Assembly: GCA_021773365.1 (NCBI GenBank)
Contig: JAJFKF010000095.1
Coordinates: 1-64,000, forward strand
Source: Gammaproteobacteria bacterium
GTDB lineage: Bacteria; Pseudomonadota; Gammaproteobacteria; Steroidobacterales; Steroidobacteraceae
Length of the DNA stretch: 64,000 nt
Reading direction: 5' to 3'
Positions 9,372 to 55,186 of this stretch are shown here, piece after piece. A model generated the notes under the pieces. The model was given only the letters and a program-made list of their open reading frames with translations, had not been told where the DNA came from and did not search any database. Each line of letters opens with the position of its first letter. The first letter of the stretch is position 1. The translations under genes and the position numbers were made by a program.

Positions 9372-9402
9372 GCGGGCTTTTCCCCCGCTGCTGCGTCTAT
9401 AC
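9372..9402 (+). promoter_or_regulatory. Cassette C2 sigma-gene promoter motif
   Basis: The 31-base element has an upstream box GCGGGCTTTT and a downstream box GCTGCTGCGTCTATAC. It matches 26 of 31 positions of the element at 10916-10946 in front of the C2 receptor gene, with the same spacing. A pair shared by a sigma gene and its receptor gene is what an autoregulated FecI-type sigma factor would recognise. Confidence 0.7.
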
Positions 9403-9423
9403 GTCGGAGGCGGAAATTTGCCC

Positions 9424-9912
9424 ATGGACTCTTTCAAAACCAGCTTCGGCAAACTCTATGGCGCGTTGCGCAGACGCGGCAAGCGCCCGGATGAGGCCGA
9501 AGACCTGGTGCAGGAGGCGTTTGTCCGTCTGCTCACCTATATCGATCGCGGCGAGAAAGTGCTGGAGCCGGAGGGGTTTCTTGCGCGCACCGCATTCAAT
9601 TTGTCGGTGGATCAGTCACGGCGCGGACGGGCTCATCTGTACGAGAGCCAGACGGTCGAGGAACTCAGGCTTCCCGATCTGGCCCCGGGTCCGGAGGATG
9701 AATTGCAGAGTGAGCAGTACCTGGATCGCACCCGCGAGATTCTCGACGAGGCGGTGGGCGAGAAGACGCGCAACGCCTTCTTTCTGCATTGCCTGGAAGG
9801 ACTGACCTACGCCGAGATCGGCGAGCAGCTCAGCATGAGCGGCCGCACCGTTGAACGTCATATTGCCAAGGCGGTGGCCGTGCTCTCTCTCAACAAGCGG
9901 CCACAACCATGA
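9424..9912 (+). CDS. FecI-type ECF sigma factor (C2)
   Basis: The 162-residue protein has sigma region 2 (about 5-70, EAEDLVQEAFVRLLTY) and region 4 (about 105-155, LTYAEIGEQLSMSGRTVERHIAKA). It should transcribe its own operon and the receptor gene at 10983. ATG 9424 is used because the promoter motif ends at 9402, ruling out longer starts. A TTG at 9418 sits at better spacing from GGAGG (9406-9410) and is an alternative. The stop overlaps the fecR-like start in an ATGA arrangement. It closely resembles the C6 sigma factor (61735), including the MD start and the DLVQEAF/DLIQEAF block. Confidence 0.92.
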   Translation: MDSFKTSFGKLYGALRRRGKRPDEAEDLVQEAFVRLLTYIDRGEKVLEPEGFLARTAFNLSVDQSRRGRAHLYESQTVEELRLPDLAPGPEDELQSEQYLDRTREILDEAVGEKTRNAFFLHCLEGLTYAEIGEQLSMSGRTVERHIAKAVAVLSLNKRPQP

Positions 9913-10895
9913 ATACCTCTGCGCTGCGCCATCATCCGACCTGGGCCGCCGCCGTGGCGGAGGCCTCTGCCTGGATCGCCTTGCTGCATGGACCTGATCG
10001 CACGGTGGCCGCGGAGCAGGGGCTGAAGCGCTGGCTGGCTGAAAGCTCTCGTCATCGGCAGGCCTTCAACCTGGCTACCGAGATCTGGATGGAATCGCGG
10101 GGCGCCGTCAAACGCGCGGCCCGGGTGAGCCTGACGCTGCCCGGCAATCGACCTGAGCCGCAGCGGCGGCGCTTGCATTGGCATCTGTCGGCGGCGGCGG
10201 CGGCGGCGTTGTTGCTGCTGCTCGCAGGCGCCGTTTTTTTCCTGCAGCAGCCCGCTGTGGTCACCGGAATCGGTGAGCGACGCATTCTGGCGCTGGAGGA
10301 TGGCACGCAGGTGTATCTGAACACCTCCACGCGCGTGGTGGTGGACTACGGTCCCAGGGGCCGTCACGTGCATCTGGAAACAGGCGAGGCCATTTTCGAG
10401 GTAGCGAAGCGGCCGGACTGGCCGTTTGTAGTGACCGTCGGCGACCGCAAGGTCACTGCACTGGGCACGGAATTCCTTGTCCGGCACGACAGGGAGCGTG
10501 TCATGGTGACTCTGGTCGATGGCAAGGTTGCGGTGGCTTCATTGTCTCCAGTGGGCGCATCCGTCGTGCTGAAGCCTGGTGAACGGCTGACGTGTTCCGG
10601 CAATGAATCCGCGTCGATCGTGGATCGGCCGGATATCGGCAAACTTACCGCCTGGCAGCGCGGCAAGGTACACATCGACAACCTGACGCTGGGTGAGGCC
10701 ATTGCCGAGATGAATCGCTACAGCAGGGTGAAACTGGCTGTAGCCGGCACAGACGCGGCGAAGATCCGCCTGAGCGGCATATTCGCCGTCGGCGATGCGC
10801 GGAATTTCGCCAATGCTGTCGCACTTACCCACGGCCTGGAAGTGAAGGAAAGCCGCTCCAGGATCGTATTGTCCGAAGTGTCGCGCGTGCCGTAA
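9909..10895 (+). CDS. FecR-family anti-sigma regulator (C2)
   Basis: The 328-residue protein has DUF4880 (about 15-60, WIALLHGPDRTVAAEQGLKRW), a membrane helix (about 93-113, an Ala/Leu run), the FecR domain (about 130-225; LALEDGTQVYLNTSTR, EAIFEVAKRPDWPF) and a DUF4974 end (about 265-325, AIAEMNRYSRVKLAV). It should couple occupancy of the downstream receptor to the C2 sigma factor. It starts within the sigma stop codon (ATGA overlap), so the two are probably made in fixed ratio. Layout and sequence are close to the C6 FecR, in line with a duplicated pair. Confidence 0.92.
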   Translation: MNTSALRHHPTWAAAVAEASAWIALLHGPDRTVAAEQGLKRWLAESSRHRQAFNLATEIWMESRGAVKRAARVSLTLPGNRPEPQRRRLHWHLSAAAAAALLLLLAGAVFFLQQPAVVTGIGERRILALEDGTQVYLNTSTRVVVDYGPRGRHVHLETGEAIFEVAKRPDWPFVVTVGDRKVTALGTEFLVRHDRERVMVTLVDGKVAVASLSPVGASVVLKPGERLTCSGNESASIVDRPDIGKLTAWQRGKVHIDNLTLGEAIAEMNRYSRVKLAVAGTDAAKIRLSGIFAVGDARNFANAVALTHGLEVKESRSRIVLSEVSRVP

Positions 10896-10915
10896 CGACA
10901 AGGCACGAACAGGCT

Positions 10916-10946
10916 GCGGAGTTTTAGCCGGCTGCTGCGTCTATAC
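10916..10946 (+). promoter_or_regulatory. Cassette C2 receptor-gene promoter motif
   Basis: GCGGAGTTTT and GCTGCTGCGTCTATAC are spaced exactly as in the element at 9372-9402 (26 of 31 bases identical). It lies 37 bases before the receptor start codon. The receptor gene can therefore be transcribed separately from sigma-fecR, under the same sigma factor. Confidence 0.72.
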
Positions 10947-10982
10947 CCGGCCATTCGGCTTCACGGCGCCAAAGGGGATGTC

Positions 10983-13900
10983 ATGCATACGTCAGTTCTG
11001 ATTCCATTGCGGGCAACGTTCGCGGTGCTGGCCCTGCTCCTGCTGACGCCTCAACTGCTGCAGGCGGCCGACTTCAATCTGCCGGCCCAGGCGCTGGGCA
11101 AGGCGCTGCACGCGCTGGGTGAGAAGACCAACGTCAATGTACTTTTCGACCCTCAGGCCGTAAAAGGCCGTGAGGCTCCGGCGGTTCAGGGCGCCACTAC
11201 GGTGGACGAGGCGCTGACGCGGTTGCTGGATGGCAGTGATCTTACCTTCCGCTATCTTGACGAGAAGACGGTGACTATTGTCCGGCGCGCGGCGGCCAGC
11301 ACACGCAGCGATGGGGCGCCCGCCGACCAGATGCGTCTGGCGGTGATCGCCGCGGAAGAAGCAAAGAAAATGCAGGAATCCACCGCCAGGGATGCGAAGA
11401 CCGGGGCGGACGTTCTGGTCGAAGGCGTTCGCGAGCGTCCGGCCCCTTTCAGCAGCGCAAATCTGGATCTGACGCGCACTGAAGACGATGTACTGCCCTT
11501 CATGATCCTGACGGCACAGGACATTCACTTTTCAGGCGCGTCCGATCTGCAGGATTTCCTGCAGCGCCGGTTACCGCAGAACTTCAATCCGGATATTCCC
11601 GATGAACTGGACGGAGGCGCGACGAGCCAGATGGATCGCCAGAATCGCATCGATATGCGCGGCTGGGGCGCCGAGGAGACAGTGATCCTGGTCAACGGGC
11701 GGCCGATGGGCGCCCAATACCAGAACGCGTCCTCCCCGGGGACGTTTTCCACACAGACGAACGACCAGCAGTCCTTCAATCTGCGCGGAATTCCTCTGGC
11801 CTCGATCGAGCGCATTGAAATTCTGGCCTCGGCCGGCAGCGCCATTTATGGCACAGGCGCCACGGGCGGCGTCATCAATATCATCACCCGCCAGGATTTC
11901 CGGGGCGGACAGGTGGCGGTGAACTATCAATCGCCGTCGGATGTTCACCGGCCGACGCGCGGCCTGGACATCAGCTATGGCATGCCACTGAGGTGGGGGT
12001 TGGGTCTGCGGGGAATGGCGAGCTACAGCGAGCGCGAGCCCCTGCGCGCCAGCGACCGTGCCGCGGTGTCCAGCGACCGCTGGCGACGTTTGGTCATGGA
12101 GCGCCAGCCCACGCGGCTGATCAATCAGTCGGGCGGTAATCCTTTCAATAGCACCTCCACGGTGTACGGCGCCACACCGAACATCCGCGCAACATCATCC
12201 AGCGGCAACCTGTTCTCCGGACTGCCCGGCGCGCAGGCGTCGAACTACACCACCGTGCCGGATGGCTACACGGGCAGTGGAGAGCTGGCTGATTTCCAGC
12301 CCGGAGTCTGGAACCTGGAGCAGGCGCAGGGCGCTGCTGGTGGCAACCTATACGCTGGCGATTCGACCCTGGGCACGGTCAACCGCAACACGATGTTCAG
12401 TGTCGGGCTGGACAAGCAGCTGGCCGCGCAGTGGCGCTGGTCGGTTGATTACCGCTACATGGACAGCACCAGCGTAGGCAACAATGACGCAACGCTTGCA
12501 CTGACGTCGAGCTCACAGACCAGCACCCGCCCCAGGGTCCCGGCCGCTGCCCCGGGAAATCCGTTCGGCCAGGATGTCTATGTGAGGCTGGTCGATCCGA
12601 TGCTCAATCGGTCAGAGCTAATGAACCAGCCAGAGAATGTAACCTGGGAGCTGAGCTCGACGCTGCGCGGGAAGATCGGCGCATGGACCGGATTTCTGGA
12701 CCTGAACTACACTCAGAACAAGAGTGCTCACGTGACCAATGTTTTTGTCGAGCCCATTGGCGGCTGGTACGACGCTCTGCTGACGGGGGCCTACGATCCT
12801 TTCGTGGATCTGCGCGTGGCGGCGCCGGCGTCCGCCGATTTCTACGCACACTACGTGCAGCAACGCACCACCGTCGACAACGCCATGCGCAACTACCAGG
12901 CTGCCATCAAGGCCTCCGGTCCGGTGTTCCGGCTCCCCGGGGGGGAAGTGCAGTTGACGGCAGGTCTGAGCTGGTCGCGGGCGGATCGCTACCGGAACGA
13001 AGGCTACGTCGAGTTTCTGGATTCGTTGACGGGGGAGTTGCGGACGCCGGTGGGTAGCGACATCGACTACACCATCGATCAGAGCCTGAGCCGACGATTC
13101 CTTTTCGACGCCTATGCCGGCTATGCGGAGTTCAATGCGCCGCTGCTGTCGCCGGAGCAGGATATACCGCTGGTGCAGCGGCTGGAGCTGTTCGGCTCCG
13201 GCCGCCTGGACTTCACCGAGCGCAACGGTTTCCGTTCGGATTTTCTGGGTGCCGACCCGGTCAAGTACAGCCATCGCTCGCAGCTGCATGCCTATGGTTT
13301 GCGCTACGAGATGCTGGAGGGGTTGTCATTTCGTGTCTCGCAGAGCATCGGCTTCAAGCCTCCCACCCTGGCCCAGGTAACACCGGACAATCCGCCGACC
13401 TTCTCGACCAGCGGCCTCAACGATCCCATACGCGACGAAGCGTTGACGCTGACCCCGACCATGTATCAGACGGGCGGCAATCCCGATGTCGGACCGGAGA
13501 CCACCGACTCGTTGAACATCGGGTTGATTCTCAGTCCGCGCTGGATGCCGGGTCTGCGCCTTTCCGTGAGCTACCTGGAGAGCACCCGCGACGACGCCAT
13601 CTTTTCCCTGGGCGCCCAGGACGCGATCAACCTGGAGCTGGACCTGCCCGGCGTGGTGCAACGTGGCGCGCCCGATGGACATGCCAGCGGTGTGGGTCCC
13701 ATCACGTTTGTCGACCGGCGCGCCATAAATCTGCGACAGGTGAGTTCCAGGAGCATGGATTTCTCCGTGCAGCAGGAGATTCAGAACATGGCCGGCGGCA
13801 GGCTGATCCTGAGCGCCGTGGCCAGCCGGAACATCAGCTTCAAGGTTCAGGCCACCAATTCAGGGCCGGCAGAGGAGCAGGTGCGTAGTCTCACCGGTGC

Positions 13901-14270
13901 ATTCGGTCGCCAGATTGAATGGAACGGCAACGCCCAGGTGCGCTGGGAAGGGCAGCAGTGGGGGTTTGGCTGGAGCACGCGCTATCTCGACTACATTCTC
14001 GTCCAGACCACCTACCTCCTGCTGCAGGGAGCCGATCGGGCGCCACGCGCGCTGGAGCACGACCTGAACGTGAGCTACCGTGCATCGTCGGCGGGTGGCG
14101 CCGGACGTTTGCAGTGGCTGCTTGAGGGCACCTCGGTGAACTTCGGCGTGAGGAATGTCTTCAACCGTGAGCCCCGCTTCTGGGCCGCCAGCACTGATCG
14201 GGGTGTCGCCCCTTTCGACAGCATCACGGGCCGCAGCATCTGGATGCAGATGCGCAAGGACTTCAACTGA
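10983..14270 (+). CDS. Large TonB-dependent receptor with STN domain (C2)
   Basis: At 1095 residues this is the longest receptor in the window. It has a signal peptide (1-28, ending LLQAAD), an STN domain (about 29-100, ALGKALHALGEKTNVNVLFDP), a linker, the TonB-box-like ADVLVEGVRE, a plug (about 165-300; RIDMRGWGAEETVILVNGRP, IYGTGATGGVINIITRQDF), and a large barrel ending RKDFN. AAGGGG stands 5 bases before the ATG. It should import an unknown ligand and signal through the C2 FecR. The barrel loops are rich in Ser, Thr and Asn and account for the extra length. The motif at 10916 gives it its own promoter; the thioredoxin gene follows 158 bases downstream. Confidence 0.93.
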   Translation: MHTSVLIPLRATFAVLALLLLTPQLLQAADFNLPAQALGKALHALGEKTNVNVLFDPQAVKGREAPAVQGATTVDEALTRLLDGSDLTFRYLDEKTVTIVRRAAASTRSDGAPADQMRLAVIAAEEAKKMQESTARDAKTGADVLVEGVRERPAPFSSANLDLTRTEDDVLPFMILTAQDIHFSGASDLQDFLQRRLPQNFNPDIPDELDGGATSQMDRQNRIDMRGWGAEETVILVNGRPMGAQYQNASSPGTFSTQTNDQQSFNLRGIPLASIERIEILASAGSAIYGTGATGGVINIITRQDFRGGQVAVNYQSPSDVHRPTRGLDISYGMPLRWGLGLRGMASYSEREPLRASDRAAVSSDRWRRLVMERQPTRLINQSGGNPFNSTSTVYGATPNIRATSSSGNLFSGLPGAQASNYTTVPDGYTGSGELADFQPGVWNLEQAQGAAGGNLYAGDSTLGTVNRNTMFSVGLDKQLAAQWRWSVDYRYMDSTSVGNNDATLALTSSSQTSTRPRVPAAAPGNPFGQDVYVRLVDPMLNRSELMNQPENVTWELSSTLRGKIGAWTGFLDLNYTQNKSAHVTNVFVEPIGGWYDALLTGAYDPFVDLRVAAPASADFYAHYVQQRTTVDNAMRNYQAAIKASGPVFRLPGGEVQLTAGLSWSRADRYRNEGYVEFLDSLTGELRTPVGSDIDYTIDQSLSRRFLFDAYAGYAEFNAPLLSPEQDIPLVQRLELFGSGRLDFTERNGFRSDFLGADPVKYSHRSQLHAYGLRYEMLEGLSFRVSQSIGFKPPTLAQVTPDNPPTFSTSGLNDPIRDEALTLTPTMYQTGGNPDVGPETTDSLNIGLILSPRWMPGLRLSVSYLESTRDDAIFSLGAQDAINLELDLPGVVQRGAPDGHASGVGPITFVDRRAINLRQVSSRSMDFSVQQEIQNMAGGRLILSAVASRNISFKVQATNSGPAEEQVRSLTGAFGRQIEWNGNAQVRWEGQQWGFGWSTRYLDYILVQTTYLLLQGADRAPRALEHDLNVSYRASSAGGAGRLQWLLEGTSVNFGVRNVFNREPRFWAASTDRGVAPFDSITGRSIWMQMRKDFN

Positions 14271-14428
14271 CGGGGCTTCCAGACGCAGATAGTCACGATC
14301 CGGTCACGTGACGCCAGGCCGGAGCGGTCGGCTCGTCGATATGCCGGCTGACAGCCATGCTCCCGGCAAGCATGGTGGCCCTGAGCGCCCGTATGATATC
14401 GTTCGAGCCCCCCGCACCGGAGACGATC

Positions 14429-14911: not shown

Positions 14912-14975
14912 GTCCGCGCCGGCTCGCGCCGGTGCCAAACGTCTGCTGCATCGCGTTCTGAACGAGTAAGGCGCC

Positions 14976-16847: not shown

Positions 16848-16888
16848 GCAATTGATTTTAATATAAAAATATTCAGCCGCGCGATGAA

Positions 16889-16918
16889 GGTATTCACTTT
16901 GCGCCGCGCAGCGCTCTA
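16889..16918 (+). promoter_or_regulatory. Cassette C3 sigma-gene promoter motif
   Basis: GGTATTCACTTT and AGCGCTCTA are set at the same spacing as in 18582-18611, upstream of the C3 receptor (23 of 30 bases identical, with both outer boxes conserved). The downstream box reaches 16918, so the transcript must start after the ATG at 16919. This moves the sigma start to the GTG at 16940. Confidence 0.72.
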
Positions 16919-16939
16919 ATGCCATTGGAGACTCCCCCA

Positions 16940-17473
16940 GTGACACCCACCGACAAGCAGGCCTACGTTGCGGACGTCGCCCGCCAGCATGGCCGGCGGC
17001 TGCGCCGTTTCGTGGCCGCGCGCCTGCGTCATGCCTCGGCCGACGTGCCGGACCTGGTCCAGGAAGTCTTCCTGCGGCTGTTGCGCATCGATCATCACGA
17101 AACCATCCGCAGCTCCGAGGCGTATCTGTTCACCGTGGCCACACACGTCCTGCACCAGCACATCATGCGCCGTGCCGCCGCGCCGGAAGCTGTCGAGCTG
17201 GCTGAGCTGGCCGCGGAGATACAGGCTGAACCGCGGCATGATCCGGCGGATCGCGCCCAGGTGCAGGAGCGGATGGAAATTCTGCAAGGCGCGCTGCAGC
17301 AGCTCTCGCCGAAGGCGCAGGCTACGCTGCTGCTGCACCGACGCGATGGCTACTCGCTGGAGGAGATTGGCGTGAGGCTTGGCATCTCGCGCGCCATGGC
17401 CGCCAAGTATCTGGGCAAGGCGCTGCTACATTGCCGACGGTGCCTGGAAGAGGAGCGACAAGGACAGGCATGA
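16940..17473 (+). CDS. FecI-type ECF sigma factor (C3)
   Basis: The 177-residue protein has region 2 (about 5-70, VPDLVQEVFLRLLRI) and region 4 (about 110-165, YSLEEIGVRLGISRAMAAKYLGKAL). It should recognise the GGTATTCACTTT/AGCGCTCTA promoters found before this gene and before the C3 receptor. The start is placed at GTG 16940, after GGAG at 16925-16928, because ATG 16919 lies inside the promoter; a start at 16919 would add seven residues. The stop overlaps the fecR-like start (ATGA). Confidence 0.88.
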   Translation: MTPTDKQAYVADVARQHGRRLRRFVAARLRHASADVPDLVQEVFLRLLRIDHHETIRSSEAYLFTVATHVLHQHIMRRAAAPEAVELAELAAEIQAEPRHDPADRAQVQERMEILQGALQQLSPKAQATLLLHRRDGYSLEEIGVRLGISRAMAAKYLGKALLHCRRCLEEERQGQA

Positions 17474-18555
17474 CGACCACCGATCTCAGCATGAACACAC
17501 AGATCTACGAGGAAGCCACGCAGTGGCTGGTGCAGCACCGCGACGGTGGGCTCAATGGCGCGGGCAAGCTGGCCTTCGACCGTTGGCTGCGCACCTCGCC
17601 GGAGCATGTGCGCGCCTATCTGGAGATGTCTTCGGTGTGGCAGGACGTGTCAGAGATGGAGACGGACGAGCACAGCGCGGCGCGGATCATCGAACGCGCT
17701 GCGGCCGACCCGACCAACGTGGTGTCCCTGGATGGTGCAAACAGCCGCAGCGGAGAAATTGCAGCCATCGCCAGGCTTGCGGTCAGGGCTGAAGGGCGCT
17801 TGCCGCGGCGGCGATTCGTGGCAGCAGCAGCTGTTGCCGTGCTGTGTGTCGTGGGGGCGCTGGCGGTCTGGCTGAACACATCGGGCTCGAGAACCTACGC
17901 CACCGAAATCGGCGAACAACGCTCGGTGGTGTTGTCCGACGGCTCCACGGTGGAGCTTAATTCCCGCTCGCGGGTGCGCGTGCGCTTTGATGACGCGCAG
18001 CGCCGGGTGCAGCTGCTGGAGGGACAGGCGCTGTTCCGCGTGGCCCGGGATGGCGCGCGTCCCTTTGTTGTTCTTAGCAGGGACACGCGCGTGCAGGCGG
18101 TGGGTACGGAGTTCGATGTGTATCGCAGGCAGGCCTCAACCGTCGTTACGGTGATCGAGGGGCGGGTGGTGGTTCGACCGGGCGAGCGGGCCGCGGCGCA
18201 CAGCACGCCGCAATCCGGATCCGGCGACGCCGGTTCCATCTATCTTTCCGCGGGCGAACAAATGATGGTCGCGGCGAAGGCGATAACCCAACCGAGGCGG
18301 GTCGACGTGGCCGTGGCCACCGCCTGGATGCAGCGCCACCTGGTTTTTGACTCCGCCCCGCTCAGCGAGGTGGCCGAGGAATTCAATCGCTACAACGCCC
18401 GGCAACTGGTGATTGATGCGCCGGAGCTCTCCGGGTTCAGGGTCAGCGGCGTGTTCTCCTCCGCGGAGCCGACATTGCTGATCAAATTCCTGCGCAACCA
18501 GCCGGAGATCGTCGTTATCGAGGCGGAGCGGGCCATTCATATCGATACCCGCTGA
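17470..18555 (+). CDS. FecR-family anti-sigma regulator (C3)
   Basis: The 361-residue protein has DUF4880 (about 15-60, ATQWLVQHRDGGLNGAGKL), a positively charged PRRRF stretch followed by one membrane helix (about 118-138), a FecR domain (about 150-255; VLSDGSTVELNSRSR, QALFRVARDGARPF) and a DUF4974 end (about 295-358, EFNRYNARQLVIDAPEL). It should pass the receptor signal to the C3 sigma factor. ATG 17470 overlaps the sigma stop, with AGGACAGG directly upstream; a second ATG at 17491 is possible. The arginine cluster before the helix could be a topology signal or a twin-arginine-like motif. Confidence 0.92.
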   Translation: MTTTDLSMNTQIYEEATQWLVQHRDGGLNGAGKLAFDRWLRTSPEHVRAYLEMSSVWQDVSEMETDEHSAARIIERAAADPTNVVSLDGANSRSGEIAAIARLAVRAEGRLPRRRFVAAAAVAVLCVVGALAVWLNTSGSRTYATEIGEQRSVVLSDGSTVELNSRSRVRVRFDDAQRRVQLLEGQALFRVARDGARPFVVLSRDTRVQAVGTEFDVYRRQASTVVTVIEGRVVVRPGERAAAHSTPQSGSGDAGSIYLSAGEQMMVAAKAITQPRRVDVAVATAWMQRHLVFDSAPLSEVAEEFNRYNARQLVIDAPELSGFRVSGVFSSAEPTLLIKFLRNQPEIVVIEAERAIHIDTR

Positions 18556-18581
18556 GTACTGGAGATTATTTTCTTCCTGGC

Positions 18582-18611
18582 GGTATTCACTTTTCTTCCG
18601 CGAGCGCTCTA
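18582..18611 (+). promoter_or_regulatory. Cassette C3 receptor-gene promoter motif
   Basis: GGTATTCACTTT and AGCGCTCTA are repeated from 16889-16918 with identical spacing. The motif lies 70 bases before the receptor start codon at 18682, so the receptor can be transcribed on its own by the same sigma factor. Confidence 0.73.
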
Positions 18612-18681
18612 TAGCCGTAAATGCCGGCCGCCTTGTTTGCTGCCGGCGCCGGACAGAGTGACAGACAGCGGGGGATTTCTC

Positions 18682-21498
18682 ATGCGTGCAGGTATTGTTG
18701 TGGCAGCCTTGTTGCTGTCAGCAAGCGGACTGGCGGCGGCGGAAGTGGCAGTGGCACGCCGCGCTACGCACATTCCGGCGCAGGGCCTGGGACCCGCATT
18801 GCAGGCGCTGGCCAAGAGCCGCGATCTGCAGGTGGTGTACCGTTCGGAGATCGTCAGCGGGCTGAAGACCCAGGGCGCATTCGGTGAGTTGACCGCGGCC
18901 GAGGCGCTGACACAGCTGCTGCGGGGAACGGGGCTGACCTACACCTACCTGCAGGACAAGGCGGTTACCATCGTGTCCGCCGACGGTCAGGCTGGCGCCG
19001 CGGCGCCGGACGCGCAGTCGCGTGATTCCGCCCGCACCCGGCCTATCAGCCTTTCGCGTGTGGACTACGTGGCCGAAGCCGCGATGCCGACTGATAACGA
19101 TGTCGGCAAGGACGGCAGCGCCGGCGCTGCTGAACGGGAGCAGGCCGGAGCTTCCGGTGGCGCCAGCGAGATGGTGATCTTCGGCGAGCGCATCGTCACC
19201 CGTAACCGCGCCGACAATGTCGAGCCCACGCTGGTGTACGAGGCCGCCTACTTTGAGCGCTTCGAGCCGCTGACGCTGAACGACATGCTCAAGCGCGTAC
19301 CCGGCGTGTACTTTGACAAGTTGTTCAATCTGCCGGACAACGCCACCGGCAGCGAATTTGCCGATACCGATGGTACTCTGCCGCGATTTCGCAATCTCGA
19401 TTCACAGTTCTCGCAGATCCTGGTTAACGGCCGTCGCATCGCCGGCATCGACTTCGGCTACGGCGGCGACGCCTTCCTGCAGACCATACCGGCGGAATCG
19501 ATCAAGGAGATTCGCGTGGTGCGCAGTCCCTCCGCCGAGATTGACAGCTCGGGGGTTGGCATGACGCTGGATGTCATCCTGAAGGACGGATCCACATTCG
19601 GCAGTAATAGCTGGCGCATCGCCGGATCCTATGTGGACCATGAGCTGGAAGGTCTGGGTTCAACCAATGTGCGGGGTGGCACCGATCGTCTCTCCTACTC
19701 CTTCAGCGCCACTGCCCAGAACCGCTTCGGCTCCGGGTACTCCATCCTCGATGGGTATTCGGACAGGGTCCTGGCGCTGGGCTCATATGCTTCGAGCACA
19801 CAAACGCGGACCACGGCATGGACTACTTCGCGACAGCGGGACGAGGATCGCAGTCTGTTTGGCACTCTTGGATTCGACCTGGGCCGGAGCGGAAAGCTTG
19901 GTATCGAGGCGAAGTATGTGCAGACAGCGACAGCAGCCAGTACAAACCTGGAACGATTCAGTGATACCACCCGCACGGTTCAGATCGGCCCGCTGCCGCC
20001 AACAACAACTCAAACCATGGAGACCACATTCAGCGATGGCGAGCAGCAGCGCGATACCTCCAACTATGGCCTGGCTCTGACTTATGCCCAGGACCTTGGT
20101 GCTGCACTCCACTGGAATCTTCTGGCTGGATATGACAGGACTGATCTTGATTCGGCCAACACTGCGTTCGAGGACGATGATGACGTGCGCTACGCCGCGG
20201 GCATCGCCAGGGCGGAGGGCAAGGGGCAGCGGTACCAGGTCAACAATCGTTTTTCGTGGGCACTGGCGCCAGAGCATGAGGTGAGATTTGGCGCCGATCT
20301 GCAGAAGACGACTGACAGCAATTTCAATACCAAGCGGACAAACCGAAGTTCCGCGCCCGACGATGGCTTCGATTCAATATTCTCGGAAGATCGCCAGAGC
20401 GTCAAGCGCGCTGATCTGTTCGGGCTGTATGAATGGCGCATGGACAACGGCCTCAGCCTGCAGCTGGGTGTGCGTCATGAAGGGTCGGACTACAATTCGA
20501 ATGCGCCGGCCAGGCTGGTCATCTCCACGGATATAGAGGAAGTATTCCAGTTTGATCCGAATGTGCTCGGCCCGAATCGCCGCACGCCTTTCTCCGCAAG
20601 TGTCAGTGGCCTCAATCCGTCCGCGCACCTGCGCTGGGCATTCAGGGAGAATCACGATATCCGCTTCTCCGTAGCGCAAACCGTGCGCCGACCGCATCTG
20701 GGCGAGCTTGATCCGCGCGTGAACATCACTGCAAGCACGAATGGTGTGCTGTCCAATCAGGTGGAAGTGGGGAATCCGGAATTGACCAATGAAGAGGGAT
20801 TGGGCTTCGATCTGGGTTACGACTGGCGCTTTACCGATGGCATTATCGGCATCAACCTGTTCCATCGCAGAGTGGAGAATCTCATCCAGCAGGGAAACAT
20901 CACGTTTCAGCGCTTCCAGGCATTGCGCCCGGATCTGACCTCCGAGATCGAGCGCTTTGCGCTGACCCTGGCGACCGAGTTCCCCCTGAGCGAGCCGGTG
21001 TCGCTGGTCTCGTATGTCAATACCGGTGACGAGACCCGTGTGCATGGGGCAGAGGTGGACATGAGCTTCCCGCTGTCCTTCATCAGCCGTGACGCGCATT
21101 TCTACATGAATGCCACCTATTCGAAGCGCAAGACTGGTGATCAGCCGAGCGTGGAAGCATCAGCCATCAATTTCTCCTATGACCATCTGATCGAGTCCCT
21201 GGGGTTTACGTATGGACTTGGAATGAACTGGATCACCAAGAGCACGAGCCATGTAGAGATCCTCGGTGCGCTGATTTCCGATAGCGAGCGAGAGCTGGAG
21301 CCGAACTTCGAGATTTTTCTGGAAAAGAAATTTGGCTCCTCGCTGTTGGCCCGCCTGACCATGGAGAACGTTACCGATGCCGTGGATGAAAGTATCGGGC
21401 TCGTGCGGACTTTCGGTTTCTCGGAGGGTACCTCGATGACGAACCGGCTGACCCAGAGTGATCCGCGAATACTCTTCACACTGCGCGGCAAATTCTGA
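18682..21498 (+). CDS. TonB-dependent receptor with STN domain (C3)
   Basis: The 938-residue protein has a signal peptide (1-20, ending GLAAAE), STN (about 30-100, LGPALQALAKSRDLQVVYRSE), a linker, a TonB-box-like EMVIFGERIVTRNR, an unusual plug (about 175-300) and a barrel ending LRGKF. The plug holds YFERFEPLTLNDMLKRVPGV, ILVNGRRIAGIDFG and EIRVVRSPSAEIDSSGVGM. It lacks the usual VYG.DAxGGVINxIT signature, instead having SSGVGMTLDVILKDG. The C4 receptor shares this plug almost word for word, so C3 and C4 are close paralogues. The ligand is unknown. ATG 18682 follows GGGGGA at good spacing. Its stop overlaps the next start by one base. Confidence 0.93.
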   Translation: MRAGIVVAALLLSASGLAAAEVAVARRATHIPAQGLGPALQALAKSRDLQVVYRSEIVSGLKTQGAFGELTAAEALTQLLRGTGLTYTYLQDKAVTIVSADGQAGAAAPDAQSRDSARTRPISLSRVDYVAEAAMPTDNDVGKDGSAGAAEREQAGASGGASEMVIFGERIVTRNRADNVEPTLVYEAAYFERFEPLTLNDMLKRVPGVYFDKLFNLPDNATGSEFADTDGTLPRFRNLDSQFSQILVNGRRIAGIDFGYGGDAFLQTIPAESIKEIRVVRSPSAEIDSSGVGMTLDVILKDGSTFGSNSWRIAGSYVDHELEGLGSTNVRGGTDRLSYSFSATAQNRFGSGYSILDGYSDRVLALGSYASSTQTRTTAWTTSRQRDEDRSLFGTLGFDLGRSGKLGIEAKYVQTATAASTNLERFSDTTRTVQIGPLPPTTTQTMETTFSDGEQQRDTSNYGLALTYAQDLGAALHWNLLAGYDRTDLDSANTAFEDDDDVRYAAGIARAEGKGQRYQVNNRFSWALAPEHEVRFGADLQKTTDSNFNTKRTNRSSAPDDGFDSIFSEDRQSVKRADLFGLYEWRMDNGLSLQLGVRHEGSDYNSNAPARLVISTDIEEVFQFDPNVLGPNRRTPFSASVSGLNPSAHLRWAFRENHDIRFSVAQTVRRPHLGELDPRVNITASTNGVLSNQVEVGNPELTNEEGLGFDLGYDWRFTDGIIGINLFHRRVENLIQQGNITFQRFQALRPDLTSEIERFALTLATEFPLSEPVSLVSYVNTGDETRVHGAEVDMSFPLSFISRDAHFYMNATYSKRKTGDQPSVEASAINFSYDHLIESLGFTYGLGMNWITKSTSHVEILGALISDSERELEPNFEIFLEKKFGSSLLARLTMENVTDAVDESIGLVRTFGFSEGTSMTNRLTQSDPRILFTLRGKF

Positions 21499-34287: not shown

Positions 34288-34318
34288 CAGGACCTGCCGC
34301 GGCGAGCCAGCCGCGCTT

Positions 34319-34350
34319 GCAGGCGGGTTTTGCCGCCCACTGCGTATTAC
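34319..34350 (+). promoter_or_regulatory. Cassette C4 sigma-gene promoter motif
   Basis: GCAGGCGGGTT and CTGCGTATTAC are separated by 10 bases. Both boxes are identical to those at 36120-36151 before the C4 receptor, while the spacer between them is not conserved. It lies 43 bases before the sigma start. Confidence 0.75.
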
Positions 34351-34393
34351 CGTATAGAGTCGACAGGCGAAGACCCACGAGCGATCCAGATCC

Positions 34394-36072: not shown

Positions 36073-36119
36073 ATTTTGCAGCGGGTGTTCATTGCGGCCG
36101 ACCGGATCCCTCGGCCGCA

Positions 36120-36151
36120 GCAGGCGGGTTGAAAGAGCAGCTGCGTATTAC
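36120..36151 (+). promoter_or_regulatory. Cassette C4 receptor-gene promoter motif
   Basis: Exact copies of the two C4 boxes (GCAGGCGGGTT, CTGCGTATTAC) lie at the same distance apart as in 34319-34350. The receptor start is 39 bases downstream. Confidence 0.75.
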
Positions 36152-36190
36152 TGGAGTAACAGCAGCTAACTGGCACGGCCAGGGGGATCG

Positions 36191-38983
36191 ATGATGAACT
36201 TCAGCTATCCGGTACGACGTTCCCGCGCCACGGCAGCCCTGATGGCTGCGCTGGCAATGAGCCTGCTTCCGCTGACGCTCAGCGCCGGCGAAATCAAACA
36301 GTTCAATATCAAGAGCCAGCCCCTGCTGGTTGCGCTGGGTGAATTCGCCCGTCAGAGCGACCGGCAGATCCTGTTTTCCACTGAAACCGTTGCCGCCAAG
36401 GAAACCACGGGGATCTCCGGGTCGCTTGATGCCGAAGCCGCGCTGCGCATGCTGCTGAAGGGCACCGGGCTGACCTACCGCATCACCGAGGAAAACACGA
36501 TCCTGGTCGAAGCGCGCTACCCGAATGACCGCAAGGCCGGCAATGGCAGGCAGGATGTGAAGTTTCTGCTTGCCCGGGCCGAAATGCCGGCGGAGTATGC
36601 TGTCGCTGATGAGGAGACTCCAACCACAGAGGAGAAGGTAGCGGCCGGCGAGCTGGAGGTGTTCGGCGAGCGCATCCTCACCCGTAACCGCGCGGCAACG
36701 GTGGAGCCGGTGCTGGTTTATGAATCCGGTTACTTCGAGCGCTTCGAACCCCTGACGCTCAACGACATGCTCAAACGCGTTCCGGGCGTGTACTTCGACA
36801 CGCTGTTCAACCTGCCGCAGAACGCCGTCGGCGGCAACATCGCCGACACCGGTAGCACGCTGCCGCGTTTTCGCAATCTCGACACGCAGCTGTCGCAGAT
36901 CCTCATCAACGGCCGACGCATCGCGGGCATCGATTTCGGCTCCGGCAGCGAGGCTTTTCTCGCCACCATTCCCGCCGAAGCGGTCCAGGAGATTCGCGTC
37001 ATCAGGAGCCCGTCCGCCGCCATCGACAGCGCGGGCGTCGGCATGACGCTGGATGTCGTTCTCAAGGACGGGTCGAACTACAGCGACAGCAGCTGGCGCC
37101 TGGGCGGCGCCTATGTCGACGGCGAACTGGAAGGTGTGGGTTCGGTGAACGTGAGGGGCAGCGCGGAGCGGTACAACTATTCGTTGAGCGCGACCTCGCA
37201 GAATCGCACCGGCACCGGCCGCTCGGTGAGCGATTCCACCAGCGTGCGTTTGCTGACGCTGCCCACCGTGACCTCCACTACCGAAACTTCCTCTCAGGCG
37301 CTGACCCTCTCCTCGCAGCGCGATGCCGACCGCAGCGTCATCGGCAACTTCGCCTTCAGCGCCGGCAGCAGGGGCAGGTTCAACCTCGAGGGAAAATACG
37401 TGGAAACCGGCCGTACGGCCGCCACCGATCAAAGCGGAATTCGCGATTCGGTGGTTACTCAGGCGTTCAGTGACGGCAGTACAGCCGTTTCCGCCTCCCA
37501 GCAGGCGATCTTCGGCCGCACCGCCACCCGTCGCGAATCCTCCAACTACGGACTTGCCCTGGCCTACGATCATGACTTCGGCGCGGTGCAGTGGAGCACT
37601 TTGGGTGGATACGACAGAACAGACCTGGAAACCACCACTGTCACCTCCACGCGTGCCGCCAGCGGCGAAATCTATGTGGCGAACATAGCGGCCGCCGATG
37701 GTAAGGGCGAGCGCTATCAGTTCAACAACCATCTGCTGTGGTCGCCCCGCGAGCGCCATTCGCTGCACCTGGGTCTGGACTGGCAGAGGACCATGGACAG
37801 TAATCCCAATTCCATCATCTCCAATCCGGCCCCTGGCGTGCCGGGCACGCCGGGATTCTTCTCGAACGATACACAGACCGTCAAACGCAGCGACCTGTTT
37901 GCCGTCTATGAATGGCAGGTGAGCGACACCCTGAGCGCGCAGGCGGGTGCGCGGTACGAACGCGCCCGGTACGCATCCCGGGCTGCGCCGGTGGTGGCCT
38001 ACGTGGGTTTCACCGAGGATGATTTCCAGTTCGATCCGGAGGTGCTGTCCCAGGACCGCCGGACCGACTTTTCAGCCACGGTCAGCGGCCTGAACCCGTC
38101 AGTGCACCTGCGCTGGTCGATCGCTCCGGATCACGACCTGCGCCTGTCGGTGGCTAGGACCGTAAGGCGTCCGACCATCGACGAACTCGATCCGGAGGTG
38201 CTGGTGGTGATCAGTGCGGAACCCTCATTCTTCAGTGAGGTCGGCTTCGGCAATCCACAGCTGAAAAACGAGGAAGCACTCGGCGTCGATCTCGGTTACG
38301 ACTGGCGCTTCCGCGACGGTATCATCGGGCTGAATGTTTTCCATCGCCGCATCGAGAACCTGATCGAGCTGGCCGAATTCGGCGTCATCACTTCGCAGCA
38401 GTTCACGGGCCTGCGCCCGGAGCTGGCGGCCGAAGTACAGCGCCTCGCCCAGTTTCTTGCCGCCATGGATCCTCCGCAGCCGTTGCAGCTGCTGGGGCCC
38501 ATCAACAGCGCGAAAACCACGAAGGTAGAGGGCGTGGAGCTCGACATGAGTTTTCCGCTTGCCTTCATCAGCGATGCGGCGCATCTGTACATGAACGCCA
38601 CTTATTCGCAGCAGCGGCGGGCGGCGGAGCCGTCCATCGAATCCTCCGCCGTCAACCTGGCTTACGATCATCAGTTCCAGTCCATCGGCCTGACCTATGG
38701 AGCCAGTTTCAACTGGGTCACGCGTGACAAGGATCACTCGGAAATACCGGGCATTCTCGAGTTCAACCGGGTGCGGGAGCTGCAGCCGAATGTAGAGATG
38801 TTCCTGGAGAAGAAGCTCGGGCGCAGCCTGCTGGTGCGGGCGACGGTGGAAAACCTCTTCGATGCCGAGGAGGAACAAGTGATCGATCAACAGCTCACCG
38901 GCTTCGTGAACAACACCAGCCATCAGGTCCGCCTGACCGAAAGCGATCCGCGTTTTCTGCTGACCTTCCGCGGCCGCTTCTGA
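36191..38983 (+). CDS. TonB-dependent receptor with STN domain (C4)
   Basis: The 930-residue protein has a signal peptide (about 1-32, ending LTLSAGE), STN (about 35-105, LLVALGEFARQSDRQILFSTE), a linker, the TonB-box-like ELEVFGERILTRNR, a plug with YFERFEPLTLNDMLKRVPGV and SAGVGMTLDVVLKDG, and a barrel ending FRGRF. It is a close paralogue of the C3 receptor, sharing the unusual plug and much of the barrel (for example LGVDLGYDWRFRDGIIGLNV). AGGGGG precedes ATG 36191. The ligand is unknown. The TlpA-like gene starts two bases after its stop. Confidence 0.93.
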   Translation: MMNFSYPVRRSRATAALMAALAMSLLPLTLSAGEIKQFNIKSQPLLVALGEFARQSDRQILFSTETVAAKETTGISGSLDAEAALRMLLKGTGLTYRITEENTILVEARYPNDRKAGNGRQDVKFLLARAEMPAEYAVADEETPTTEEKVAAGELEVFGERILTRNRAATVEPVLVYESGYFERFEPLTLNDMLKRVPGVYFDTLFNLPQNAVGGNIADTGSTLPRFRNLDTQLSQILINGRRIAGIDFGSGSEAFLATIPAEAVQEIRVIRSPSAAIDSAGVGMTLDVVLKDGSNYSDSSWRLGGAYVDGELEGVGSVNVRGSAERYNYSLSATSQNRTGTGRSVSDSTSVRLLTLPTVTSTTETSSQALTLSSQRDADRSVIGNFAFSAGSRGRFNLEGKYVETGRTAATDQSGIRDSVVTQAFSDGSTAVSASQQAIFGRTATRRESSNYGLALAYDHDFGAVQWSTLGGYDRTDLETTTVTSTRAASGEIYVANIAAADGKGERYQFNNHLLWSPRERHSLHLGLDWQRTMDSNPNSIISNPAPGVPGTPGFFSNDTQTVKRSDLFAVYEWQVSDTLSAQAGARYERARYASRAAPVVAYVGFTEDDFQFDPEVLSQDRRTDFSATVSGLNPSVHLRWSIAPDHDLRLSVARTVRRPTIDELDPEVLVVISAEPSFFSEVGFGNPQLKNEEALGVDLGYDWRFRDGIIGLNVFHRRIENLIELAEFGVITSQQFTGLRPELAAEVQRLAQFLAAMDPPQPLQLLGPINSAKTTKVEGVELDMSFPLAFISDAAHLYMNATYSQQRRAAEPSIESSAVNLAYDHQFQSIGLTYGASFNWVTRDKDHSEIPGILEFNRVRELQPNVEMFLEKKLGRSLLVRATVENLFDAEEEQVIDQQLTGFVNNTSHQVRLTESDPRFLLTFRGRF

Positions 38984-47910: not shown

Positions 47911-47912
47911 GG

Positions 47913-48413: not shown

Positions 48414-48520
48414 CCATCTCTCTGTATATACGAAGCCGGCGGGCATTTTCTTCCATTGGGCGGGTGCCGTCATCTGTTTGCATATGGCTACGTTGACTGT
48501 GCGCACAAGGGGTGGCTACT

Positions 48521-53502: not shown

Positions 53503-53505
53503 CAA

Positions 53506-54501
53506 CTAGCGCGTGGAGATGTGCACGGCGTCTTTATCGTCATGCACCCGCAGGGCCGGAACGGCCGCTTCCAGCGTATTCAGCCATCCTTCCCAGTCCT
53601 GGTTCAGGAAGGTGGCGGTGATGCGCAGATTGGCGGCAGCGGAATCGTCGATGAGAACAGGTCGGGTGGCATAGCGATTCAGGTCCGCAACCACGATCTG
53701 CAATGGCGCGTCGATGTAGCGATGCTGGCCATCGCGCCAGGTGGCCACCTGTCCGGCTGCAACGTGGCGAATGACCGGCTGCGGATCCTCTGCGGTGAGC
53801 ACCGCCTCCTGTCCGGAAAGCAGTGCCGTTGGCGCTGATTCCAGTTCGCTGTTCTCCAGCCGTACGCGACCTTCCGCGACTTCGACGGCCACGGCCTCGC
53901 CGTAACGGCGCACGTTGAATGAGGTGCCAATGGCCGTCACGCGGTTCGGGCCGGCTTCCACCATGAAGGGACGTGACGGATCGCGCTCGACGGTGAAAAA
54001 GGCCTCGCCGGATAACAGCTGAATTCGCCGCTGTTGCCCGGTGTAGCGCACCAGCAGTTCAGTGTGCGCCCCGACCTGCATGCTCGAACCGTCGGGCAGC
54101 GCGATCTGGCGGTGCTCGGCGATCCGTGTTGCCACGGTCGAACTGAAGGCGGCGCCATTGCCAGGCGTGACGGGCATGAACAACCAGATTCCCGCCGCCA
54201 GTGCGGCTAATGCCGCTGCAGCTGCCCAGCCGGTCCAGTGGCGGATTCGCTTGCGCCGCAGATCCGCAATGCCATCGCGGTCATGCATGACTTCCGCGTC
54301 GGTCGGCCACGGAGGCGAAGACACCGCATCGAGCGCTCGCCAGGTTCGCTGTACTGTTTCATAGGCGCTGCGGTGGGCGCTGGAGCGCTCCATCCACTGC
54401 TGCCAGCCGCTGAGCGTGTCCACGCCGGCTTCCTCGCGCTCCACCTGCATGAACCACTGCACGGCTTCTTGATCGAGGCTGTTGCGGGTACTACTGTCCA
54501 T
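53506..54501 (-). CDS. FecR-family anti-sigma regulator (C5)
   Basis: The 331-residue protein has DUF4880 (about 8-50, AVQWFMQVEREEAGVDTLSG), a membrane helix (about 92-111), a FecR domain (about 120-220; ALPDGSSMQVGAHTEL, EAFFTVERDPSRPF) and a DUF4974 end (about 265-328, VVADLNRYATRPVLIDDS). It relays the receptor signal to the C5 sigma factor. ATG 54501 overlaps the sigma stop by 11 bases. The receptor gene is on the opposite strand, so this cassette is divergent, unlike the other five. Confidence 0.91.
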   Translation of the reverse strand: MDSSTRNSLDQEAVQWFMQVEREEAGVDTLSGWQQWMERSSAHRSAYETVQRTWRALDAVSSPPWPTDAEVMHDRDGIADLRRKRIRHWTGWAAAAALAALAAGIWLFMPVTPGNGAAFSSTVATRIAEHRQIALPDGSSMQVGAHTELLVRYTGQQRRIQLLSGEAFFTVERDPSRPFMVEAGPNRVTAIGTSFNVRRYGEAVAVEVAEGRVRLENSELESAPTALLSGQEAVLTAEDPQPVIRHVAAGQVATWRDGQHRYIDAPLQIVVADLNRYATRPVLIDDSAAANLRITATFLNQDWEGWLNTLEAAVPALRVHDDKDAVHISTR

Positions 54502-55102
54502 GTTCGCCTCCTTGTTTGTCTTCTGCCACTGCTGCGGGCTGAAGTGCGCGGCGGCAATGTAGCAGGGCACGGGTAATGTACGTCCGCACCATCCGGTCCG
54601 AGACCTGCAGCTGCCGGGCAATCTCCATCATGGTGAAGTTGTGGAACTTGTGCAGCAGGAACGCCCGGCGGCATTTCGGTGGCAGAGAGGCCAGCGCCTC
54701 ACGCAGATGGGCCACCTCCTGGGCGGTGGCTGCTGCTTCCTCTGGCGGAACCGGCAGGTTCAGGGCTTCAGCGGCAGCATAGGCCTCATCAAGGCGTTCA
54801 TGCCGATGGCGACTACGTAGACGATCGGTAGCCAGGTTGGCGGCGGTCTTGTAGAGAAAGGCGCGCAGGTAGCTGATGGCGCCCGGCGTATTCAGGCTGA
54901 GCAGGCGCACGTAGGCTTCCTGGGCAATCTCCTTTGCCTCCTGCTGCGAACCCAGCCTGGAGGCCAGAAACCGGAGCAGAGCAGCATTGTGCTCCATGTA
55001 CAGCCGCTCGATCAGAGTCGCATGCCCGGCATCCTCATCGCTGGCGGGCGTGGCGTCGGTAGGTGGGTGCCGCGGTTCCATTTCTGCTGCAAAGTATTGC
55101 AT
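54491..55102 (-). CDS. FecI-type ECF sigma factor (C5)
   Basis: The 203-residue protein has region 2 (about 30-100, EAKEIAQEAYVRLL, FLYKTAANLATDRLR) and region 4 (about 125-190, FTMMEIARQLQVSDRMVRTY). It should recognise the mirrored promoters at 55109-55186. ATG 55102 lies only a few bases from the promoter's downstream box, so the transcript would be almost leaderless; ATG 55081 is an alternative start. It is transcribed away from the receptor gene. Confidence 0.9.
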   Translation of the reverse strand: MQYFAAEMEPRHPPTDATPASDEDAGHATLIERLYMEHNAALLRFLASRLGSQQEAKEIAQEAYVRLLSLNTPGAISYLRAFLYKTAANLATDRLRSRHRHERLDEAYAAAEALNLPVPPEEAAATAQEVAHLREALASLPPKCRRAFLLHKFHNFTMMEIARQLQVSDRMVRTYITRALLHCRRALQPAAVAEDKQGGEHGQ

Positions 55103-55108
55103 AACCCT

Positions 55109-55141
55109 CCCTTAGACGACCAAGTCGCCGAAAAGCGGAAG
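55109..55141 (-). promoter_or_regulatory. Cassette C5 sigma-gene promoter motif
   Basis: Read on the - strand it is CTTCCGCTTTTCG, a spacer, then CGTCTAAGGG. It matches the + strand motif at 55154-55186 at 27 of 33 positions, with equal spacing. The shared CTTCCGCTTTTC arms also form a perfect inverted repeat across the divergent region. Confidence 0.75.
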
Positions 55142-55153
55142 TGGTGTCCGCAG

Positions 55154-55186
55154 CTTCCGCTTTTCGCTGAGCTGGGCGTCTGAGGG
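55154..55186 (+). promoter_or_regulatory. Cassette C5 receptor-gene promoter motif
   Basis: CTTCCGCTTTTCG, a spacer, then CGTCTGAGGG: the mirror image of the motif at 55109-55141. It lies 32 bases before the receptor start. The two promoters are back to back, their upstream boxes 12 bases apart. Confidence 0.75.

What the first reader, a model, noticed from the sequence alone, without database searches (positions are those of the whole stretch)
9372..55186. Cassette-specific promoter code: the same two-box element before sigma and receptor genes
In C2, C3, C4 and C5 a 30-33 base element occurs twice, upstream of the sigma gene and of the receptor gene, with identical spacing. The boxes differ between cassettes (C2 TTTT/GCGTCTATAC, C3 GGTATTCACTTT/AGCGCTCTA, C4 GCAGGCGGGTT/CTGCGTATTAC, C5 CTTCCGCTTTTCG/CGTCTRAGGG). 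This predicts insulated sigma-promoter pairs with positive feedback on both operons.
Basis: partly seen in the sequence, partly recalled or inferred. Interest (0 to 1): 0.85.

Follow-up and report, generated by a model that had tools for sequence, protein, structure and literature searches.

The report
Private promoters for paralogous sigma factors
Many of the genome's roughly 150 look-alike receptor gene cassettes carry their own DNA 'address', repeated in front of the receptor gene and in front of (or beside) its switch gene, which probably lets many nearly identical switches work side by side with little mixing of signals.

Summary
In C2-C5 a two-box element precedes sigma and receptor with identical spacing. 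Allowing 3 mismatches, each occurs only at its two sites in the 3.97 Mb genome, except one C3 hit, a paralogous sigma's own element. Among 150 complete sigma-FecR-receptor cassettes, pairs exceed the 1% level of mismatched pairs in 32 of 83 tandem and 32 of 67 divergent ones (permutation maxima 5 and 7). The spacer agrees at about chance level.

The top-ranked covarying sigma residues and bases match crystallographic ECF contacts: region 2.4 D/E/Q with the -11 base, region 4 helix E/K/R with a -35 base. The -35 rule held in another family (17 of 22 copies as predicted, 0 opposite).

Best reading: private ECF promoters on a FecI-type signalling module, with inferred positive feedback. Limits: 70 of 150 cassettes show no detected pair; in 16 tandem ones, C1 included, the sigma-side copy is reversed; 21 of 80 elements are no closer to their partner than to another cassette's; no transcription was measured.

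The parts
337..372 (-). C1 element, sigma side, REVERSED (reads away from sigma)
   Evidence: score 34.7 against the receptor copy; context; coordinates
430..1020 (+). C1 ECF sigma gene (sigma r2 hit at 496-681)
968..2143 (+). C1 FecR-type regulator
   Evidence: Pfam FecR 7.4e-20
2171..2206 (+). C1 element, receptor side
   Evidence: coordinates
2248..5004 (+). C1 TonB-dependent receptor with STN domain
9368..9403 (+). C2 element, sigma side (TGCGGNNTTTT / GCTGCTGCGTCTATAC)
   Evidence: (score 42.8)
9424..9912 (+). C2 ECF sigma gene (the longest ORF starts at 9271, upstream of the element)
   Evidence: start is inference
9909..10895 (+). C2 FecR-type regulator
10912..10947 (+). C2 element, receptor side
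10983..14270 (+). C2 TonB-dependent receptor with STN domain
16887..16922 (+). C3 element, sigma side (GGTATTCACTTT / AGCGCTCTA)
   Evidence: (score 39.9)
16940..17473 (+). C3 ECF sigma gene; GTG 16940 is the likely start because ATG 16919 overlaps the element
   Evidence: start is inference
17431..18555 (+). C3 FecR-type regulator
18580..18615 (+). C3 element, receptor side
18637..21498 (+). C3 TonB-dependent receptor with STN domain (in-frame ATG at 18682 is a likelier start)
34317..34352 (+). C4 element, sigma side (GCAGGCGGGTT / CTGCGTATTAC)
   Evidence: (score 33.9)
34394..34987 (+). C4 ECF sigma gene
34984..36072 (+). C4 FecR-type regulator
36118..36153 (+). C4 element, receptor side
36191..38983 (+). 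C4 TonB-dependent receptor with STN domain
53506..54621 (-). C5 FecR-type regulator
54491..55102 (-). C5 ECF sigma gene (r2 hit at 54803-55003)
55109..55144 (-). C5 element, sigma side (CTTCCGCTTTTCG / TCGTCTAAGGG)
   Evidence: (score 39.2)
55151..55186 (+). C5 element, receptor side, back to back with the sigma-side one
55219..57930 (+). C5 TonB-dependent receptor with STN domain

Best explanation
Each element is the -35/-10 promoter read by RNA polymerase carrying that cassette's own ECF sigma factor. Shown: the paired elements, their fixed spacing and preferred orientation, the near-uniqueness of C2-C5 in the genome, and covariation with sigma residues at positions that contact DNA in a solved ECF complex. 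Inferred: an outside ligand binds the TonB receptor, its STN domain signals through FecR, the sigma is freed, and it transcribes the receptor operon and, in the forward and divergent classes, its own sigma-FecR operon (positive feedback). The -10 core (C/A)(G/C)TCTWW is shared by nearly all detected elements. Privacy comes mostly from a 9-base -35 box read by region 4, plus the base before TC, which tracks region 2.4. Divergence of these contacts after duplication would let very many paralogous channels coexist.
For: Pairing beyond chance: 32/83 tandem, 32/67 divergent. C2-C5 near-unique in the genome. Identical spacing. Copies agree 0.75-0.99 across the 9-base -35 box but 0.28-0.44 at 8 of 9 spacer positions. 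Mantel on 80 cassettes: -35 with region 4 r=0.153 (given region 2: 0.111, p=0.002); -10 with region 2 r=0.091 (p=0.007) but with region 4 r=0.025 (p=0.23). First and third of the covariation ranking: region 2.4 column 61 with the G/C before TC of the -10 (z 15.4; D with G in 82 of 82 copies, Q with C in 13 of 14, E mixed) and region 4 helix column 143 with a -35 base (z 9.3; E with G in 40 of 52, K with C in 29 of 36). In Mtb sigmaH, N92 bonds the -11 pair and M181 contacts -31/-30 (passages of PMC6411747), which I take as the positions equivalent to columns 61 and 143. Replication in three genomes of another family: 12 of 36 pairs at 1%; -35 rule 17 of 22 copies as predicted, 0 opposite, 5 other bases.
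Against: No transcript, start site or binding was measured. 70 of 150 complete cassettes have no pair at the 1% level, and in 16 more the sigma-side copy is reversed. The -35 distance also correlates with region 2 given region 4 (0.092, p=0.007), and even the spacer correlates weakly with sigma distance (0.071, p=0.012 for region 2), so shared descent contributes. Region-wide mean z hardly separates the domains (region 2: 0.46 with -35, 0.52 with -10; region 4: 0.38, 0.36), and some high pairs have no structural reason I know, such as column 131 with +2 (z 7.2) and column 123 with +1 (5.8). On supported branches of a sigma tree the -10 rule has only 5 independent contrasts (2.8 agree, 0 disagree, not significant alone), and the E143 versus K/R143 trait changed only about 4 times. 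The -10 rule out of sample is weak: 18 of 26 copies, Fisher p=0.24 by cassette. In the window itself C5 breaks the -35 rule (R143 with G). In 25 cassettes of nearer relatives no pair passes 1%.
Confidence: 0.87

Rival explanations
1. The elements are operators for a different, cassette-specific DNA-binding regulator, or inverted-repeat operators (C5 looks like one).
For: The C5 copies form an inverted repeat because the two elements stand back to back; strong palindromes occur in several divergent intergenic regions.
Against: In tandem cassettes the copies are asymmetric and directional (both regions reverse-complemented: 1 of 83 passes). The conserved parts are two boxes at ECF spacing with an ECF-like -10, and the variable bases track sigma residues at DNA contacts.
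Confidence: 0.05
2. The two copies are alike only because a stretch of DNA was recently duplicated within each cassette.
For: Paralogous cassettes do share elements (nearest pairs).
Against: The boxes agree at 0.75-0.99 (-35) and 0.68-0.99 (-10), while 8 of 9 spacer positions agree at 0.28-0.44 and the outermost two positions on either side at 0.26-0.45.
Confidence: 0.02
3. The promoters are real but not insulated: paralogous sigmas read each other's elements, so cassettes work in groups.
For: 21 of 80 elements are as close to another cassette's as to their own partner; near-identical groups include C141/C69, C57/C66, C94/C73, C142/C69 and C86/C8.
Against: 59 of 80 are closest to their own partner; 16 box positions agree 13.9 on average within a cassette against 7.7 between cassettes (best of four copy pairs). 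The C2, C4 and C5 elements have no other site within 3 mismatches.
Confidence: 0.3
4. The sigma-side copy mostly serves something other than positive feedback (antisense RNA, or negative feedback by a polymerase parked beside sigma's own promoter).
For: In 16 of 83 tandem cassettes, C1 among them, the copy is reversed (permutation maximum 5), with scores as high as the forward class (median 34.7 against 29.9). In 13 of these 16 the best-scoring coding stretch within 1.4 kb upstream runs towards sigma, so in most there is no divergent gene to drive (a close tie for C1).
Against: 64 of the 80 detected copies face the sigma gene. A sigma70-like promoter next to the reversed copy is only marginally enriched (7.66 against 7.25 shuffled, n=16).
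Confidence: 0.15

Closest known systems
FecI/FecR/FecA cell-surface signalling (E. coli; Pup and Fpv systems of Pseudomonas)
   Same: ECF sigma + FecR-domain regulator + TonB receptor with an STN signalling domain; receptor gene under the ECF promoter.
   Different: E. coli fecIR is Fur-controlled and not autoregulated (PMC9249621, passages). HemI of Stenotrophomonas also shows no autoregulation, though its authors call that system atypical (PMC12772443, passages). Here a sigma-specific element also faces the sigma gene in 64 of 150 cassettes, no Fur-box excess was found (1 of 300 regions at 13/19 or more, 1.2 expected), and 150 complete cassettes sit in one 4 Mb genome.
Autoregulated ECF sigma factors and the residue-to-base code of Todor et al. 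2020 (PNAS)
   Same: Positive autoregulation, two-box promoters, residues in regions 2 and 4 related to -10 and -35 bases (as described in the review PMC8103513, passages; the PNAS paper is not held).
   Different: That review names FecI-like ECFs as an exception to autoregulation. Here the code was recovered from paralogues of a single genome, each with two copies of its promoter. Whether the positions agree with theirs was not checked.
Paralogous SigI/RsgI sets of cellulolytic clostridia
   Same: Several homologous sigmas with limited cross-talk, and specificity proposed to lie in the divergent upstream part of the -35 element (PMC6056542, passages).
   Different: 8 to 16 SigI per genome in that paper, and other protein families; here 150 complete ECF/FecR/TonB-receptor cassettes.
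ECF/anti-sigma/SusC systems of Bacteroides thetaiotaomicron
   Same: Large sets of ECF + anti-sigma + TonB-dependent transporter modules.
   Different: 50 ECFs (PMC12596196, passages); predicting their promoters was called a challenge needing start-site data (PMC3878776, passages).

Membership tests
FecI/FecR/FecA-type cell-surface signalling module | ECF sigma with regions 2 and 4 | tested here: met
   Pfam r2 and r4 in the sigmas of C2, C3, C4 and C6; for C1 and C5 only r2 by the genome search and the own sigma profile
FecI/FecR/FecA-type cell-surface signalling module | FecR-domain regulator directly downstream of sigma | tested here: met
   Pfam FecR in C1-C6; genome-wide 159 of 171 sigma ORFs, one of them a second piece of another, have a FecR downstream
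FecI/FecR/FecA-type cell-surface signalling module | TonB-dependent receptor with N-terminal STN signalling domain | tested here: met
   STN + Plug + barrel in C1-C5
FecI/FecR/FecA-type cell-surface signalling module | receptor gene transcribed by the cognate sigma | tested here: inconclusive
   promoter-like element with sigma covariation; no transcription data
FecI/FecR/FecA-type cell-surface signalling module | sigma operon Fur-controlled and not autoregulated, as in E. coli fec | tested here: not met
   no Fur-box excess and a sigma-specific element facing sigma in 64 of 150 cassettes. A feature of the E. coli example rather than of the module, so module membership stands
Autoregulated ECF sigma factors | same two-box promoter at the sigma operon and at a target | tested here: met
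   32 of 83 tandem and 32 of 67 divergent cassettes at the 1% level; not detected in the rest
Autoregulated ECF sigma factors | sigma level rises with its own activity | not testable with these tools
   needs reporter or RNA data
SigI/RsgI paralogue sets | SigI-type sigma with SigI-C domain and RsgI anti-sigma | not tested
   not searched for specifically; the window sigmas and regulators match sigma-70 r2/r4 and FecR families

The most novel reading that the evidence does not exclude
This lineage carries the largest natural set of mutually orthogonal sigma/promoter channels (80 read out here, up to about 150), made by duplicating a FecI-type module and turning it into a self-amplifying switch with a private promoter. 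Because a paralogue displays its promoter twice, one genome is enough to read out the sigma residue-to-base code. A second design, with the sigma-side promoter copy reversed, would add a further feedback mode (antisense RNA or negative feedback).
Probability: 0.5. Interest if true: 0.88.

Novelty: new variant of a known kind. Interest (0 to 1): 0.77.

Why it matters
With some species holding more than 100 ECFs, how ECF/anti-sigma pairs avoid massive cross-talk has been posed as a pertinent question (PMC7406223, passages); 109 sigma factors in Sorangium cellulosum was cited as an example of a plethora (PMC4598750, passages). Here 150 complete cassettes sit in 4 Mb (175 FecR first-look candidates; the next highest of the genomes listed in a draw of 147 of the order has 27), and the promoter side of the specificity problem is readable. 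That makes it directly testable and offers a parts list of candidate sigma/promoter pairs.

Tried and rejected
Reversed elements as promoters of a divergent gene: rejected for most, since in 13 of 16 the best-scoring coding stretch within 1.4 kb upstream runs towards sigma (forward class: 21 of 32, others 20 of 35); an ORF search away from the element gave no convincing genes. A sigma70 promoter beside the reversed element: only marginal enrichment. Fur control: no excess of Fur boxes. The element pair in nearer relatives (same family; 25 of 29 loci usable, 9 of those without a receptor in reach, and L240 and L262 being the same place): none passes 1%, best p=0.011. Tree-aware test of the residue code: underpowered. 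Naming the organism: the receptor query found no relative; for an ABC-F protein the first 11 rows, 46-52% identical, are proteobacteria, mostly beta, so no name is given. A plasmid search with the C4 cassette found nothing. No structure prediction was run: passages on a solved ECF complex answered the question.

Rows dropped: from 171 sigma ORFs to 150 complete cassettes (12 without FecR, 8 without a receptor in reach, 1 second piece of a split ORF). The uniqueness count used 69 of the 80 cassettes (13 or more agreed box positions). In the Fisher test the tables were typed by hand: for -35, L279 (C and T) was counted as C, and L288 and L309 (A/T bases) were left out; for -10, L280 (mixed) and L294 (K61) were left out. 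At a 1% level about 2 of the 80 pairs may be false (my estimate). The mapping to sigmaH numbering rests on the W81-I85-N88-N92 spacing and a profile alignment to a SigE chain, not on a direct alignment to sigmaH.
Full report
OBSERVATION. The window is contig C152:1-64000 of a 3.97 Mb, 157-contig genome. Pfam scans and genome searches find ECF sigma, FecR and TonB-receptor genes in six cassettes, the C6 receptor lying mostly past the window. Searching the whole genome with each two-box pattern, allowing 3 mismatches, returns only the two expected sites for C2, C4 and C5. For C3 it returns the two sites plus one 3-mismatch hit at C27:15302-15331(-), which independently lists as the paired element before another sigma gene. 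The backward-read controls gave no hit.

GENOME-WIDE TEST. The genome has at least 150 matches each to sigma r2, FecR and Plug, 150 being the number scored. I fetched 158 stretches round the sigma and FecR hits and annotated them and the window with HMMs built from the window proteins: 171 sigma, 166 FecR and 154 receptor ORFs, giving 150 complete cassettes, 83 tandem and 67 divergent. A first look by plain identity: at least 21 of 32 bases in 83 of 150 own pairs, against 4.2% of 7259 mismatched pairs (palindromes in divergent regions inflate this). A two-box score between sigma-upstream and receptor-upstream DNA exceeds the 99th percentile of mismatched pairs in 32 of 83 tandem and 32 of 67 divergent cassettes. 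In 2000 permutations the count never passed 5 and 7. With identity alone, no -10 model, it is 26 of 83 tandem (maximum 5). With both tandem regions reverse-complemented only 1 of 83 passes. Equal spacers give 31 of 83; spacers differing by 1 to 3 give 3-10.

A SECOND ORIENTATION. With only the sigma side reversed, 16 of 83 tandem cassettes pass (permutation maximum 5). The window's C1 is one: 337-372(-) against 2171-2206(+). In 13 of these 16 the best-scoring coding stretch upstream runs towards sigma, so the copy would fire towards its 3' end. This is unexplained.

ANATOMY. In the 80 cassettes (32 forward, 16 reversed, 32 divergent), with positions counted from the first base of the CGTC-like box, the copies agree at 0.75-0.99 over -23 to -15 (the -35 box), 0.28-0.44 at 8 of 9 spacer positions (0.55 at the ninth) and 0.68-0.99 over -1 to +5. 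The masked search region was wider than the conserved parts, so the box edges were not imposed, though agreement inside the boxes is inflated by selection. The -10 core is (C/A)(G/C)TCTWW in nearly all; the -35 box has low information across cassettes (at most 0.41 bits at a position), that is, it is largely cassette-specific.

COVARIATION WITH SIGMA. Mantel tests over 80 cassettes: -35 distance with region 4 r=0.153 (p=0.0005), given region 2 0.111 (p=0.002); with region 2 0.140, given region 4 0.092 (p=0.007). -10 distance with region 2 r=0.091 (p=0.007), with region 4 0.025 (p=0.23). The spacer, a control, correlates weakly too (0.071 with region 2, p=0.012; 0.062 with region 4, p=0.03). 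Among column-by-base pairs (60 permutations each) the strongest was column 61 (region 2.4) with base +1 of the -10 (z 15.4), then column 50 with the same base (10.9), then column 143 in the region 4 helix with -35 base -18 (9.3); lower pairs include some without an evident structural reason. Mean z of the recognition helix is 0.80 with -35 and 0.31 with -10, but whole regions 2 and 4 differ little. Counts of copies: D61 with G 82 of 82; Q61 with C 13 of 14; E61 mixed (27 C, 21 G, 5 A, 1 T); F50 with G 66 of 66; Y50 mixed; E143 with G 40 of 52 and C 0; K143 with C 29 of 36 and G 0; R143 with C 20, A 12, T 2 and G 2 of 36, the two G being the window's C5. In the Mtb sigmaH open complex N92 bonds C-11(t), W81 lines the -10/-9 pockets and M181 contacts -31/-30 (PMC6411747, passages). 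The spacing W81-I85-N88-N92 equals columns 50-54-57-61; taking the base before TC as -11, -18 becomes -30. The ranking used no structural information. Phylogeny weakens the statistics: 11 changes of the -10 base and 14 of D61 on the sigma tree, but only 5 independent supported contrasts (2.8 agree, 0 disagree); for E143/K/R143 against G/C, 43 of 44 cassettes agree but with only 4-5 changes.

REPLICATION. No other genome of its genus is among the 29 relatives searched. FecR first-look candidates: 175 here, next 27 (G085) among the genomes listed of 147 in the order. In 25 usable cassettes of same-family relatives no pair passes 1%. In 36 usable cassettes of 40 from three genomes of another family (G085, G114, G130), 12 pass 1% and 17 pass 5%; 3 of 34 tandem ones pass 1% in reverse. 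For the 14 cassettes passing in either orientation the -35 rule gives 17 of 22 copies as predicted, 0 opposite, 5 other bases (six further copies have no E/K/R residue); the -10 rule gives 18 of 26. By cassette, Fisher p=0.012 (9 cassettes) and 0.24 (12 cassettes).

INSULATION. Over 16 box positions, copies of one cassette agree at 13.9, different cassettes at 7.7 (best of four copy pairs). 59 of 80 elements are closer to their partner than to any other detected cassette's; 21 are not, among them near-identical paralogue groups. For 69 cassettes with at least 13 agreed positions, extra hits (at most 1 mismatch) in the 0.87 Mb examined number 40, against 32 for backward controls, and 13 of the 40 are known paralogue elements, so no wider regulon is visible there; the rest of the genome was searched only for C2-C5.

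MECHANISM AND STATUS. A ligand-bound receptor signals through STN and FecR and frees the sigma, which drives the receptor operon and, where a copy faces it, its own operon. Promoter identity is well supported; the signalling chain follows from the known Fec families; feedback is inferred. It works like FecI-type signalling, with which it shares the module parts, but shows no sign of Fur control and has promoters facing sigma, whereas E. coli fecIR is not autoregulated (PMC9249621, passages) and FecI-like ECFs are named as exceptions to autoregulation (PMC8103513, passages). My paper searches listed no paper that, by title and abstract start, describes a FecI-type set with paired private promoters; they cover open-licence papers only.

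Noticed in passing
window 337-372(-), and 15 further tandem cassettes of the genome: The cassette element is repeated upstream of sigma in reverse orientation, mostly facing the 3' end of the upstream coding stretch; conserved as well as the forward copies.
   Followed up: partly
whole genome G000: Large lineage expansion: at least 150 sigma r2, FecR and Plug matches in 3.97 Mb; the next highest listed genome of the order has 27 FecR candidates against 175.
   Followed up: partly
window 47155-49828: Sigma r2 match without a scored FecR at 48180-48374(-) (61.7 bits), a 251-aa protein 47155-47910(-) with a weak NepR match, and a divergent S8 peptidase 48512-49828(+); possibly another sigma/anti-sigma type.
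   Followed up: no
window 4889-7411, 14357-16847, 21498-22835, 38985-40463, 57924-59366: Genes after the receptors differ: S9 peptidase, thioredoxin-fold proteins with an NhaA antiporter, redoxin with DUF3738, erythromycin-esterase-like protein; this hints at ligands other than iron carriers.
   Followed up: no
G000:C57:38920-39195 and C66:51704-52219: FecR match with two in-frame TGA codons and a sigma match with one TAG inside: possible signs of decaying cassettes.
   Followed up: no
window 16919 and 55102: Mechanical start codons of the C3 and C5 sigma ORFs overlap or nearly abut the element, so the true starts are probably downstream (GTG 16940 for C3).
   Followed up: partly
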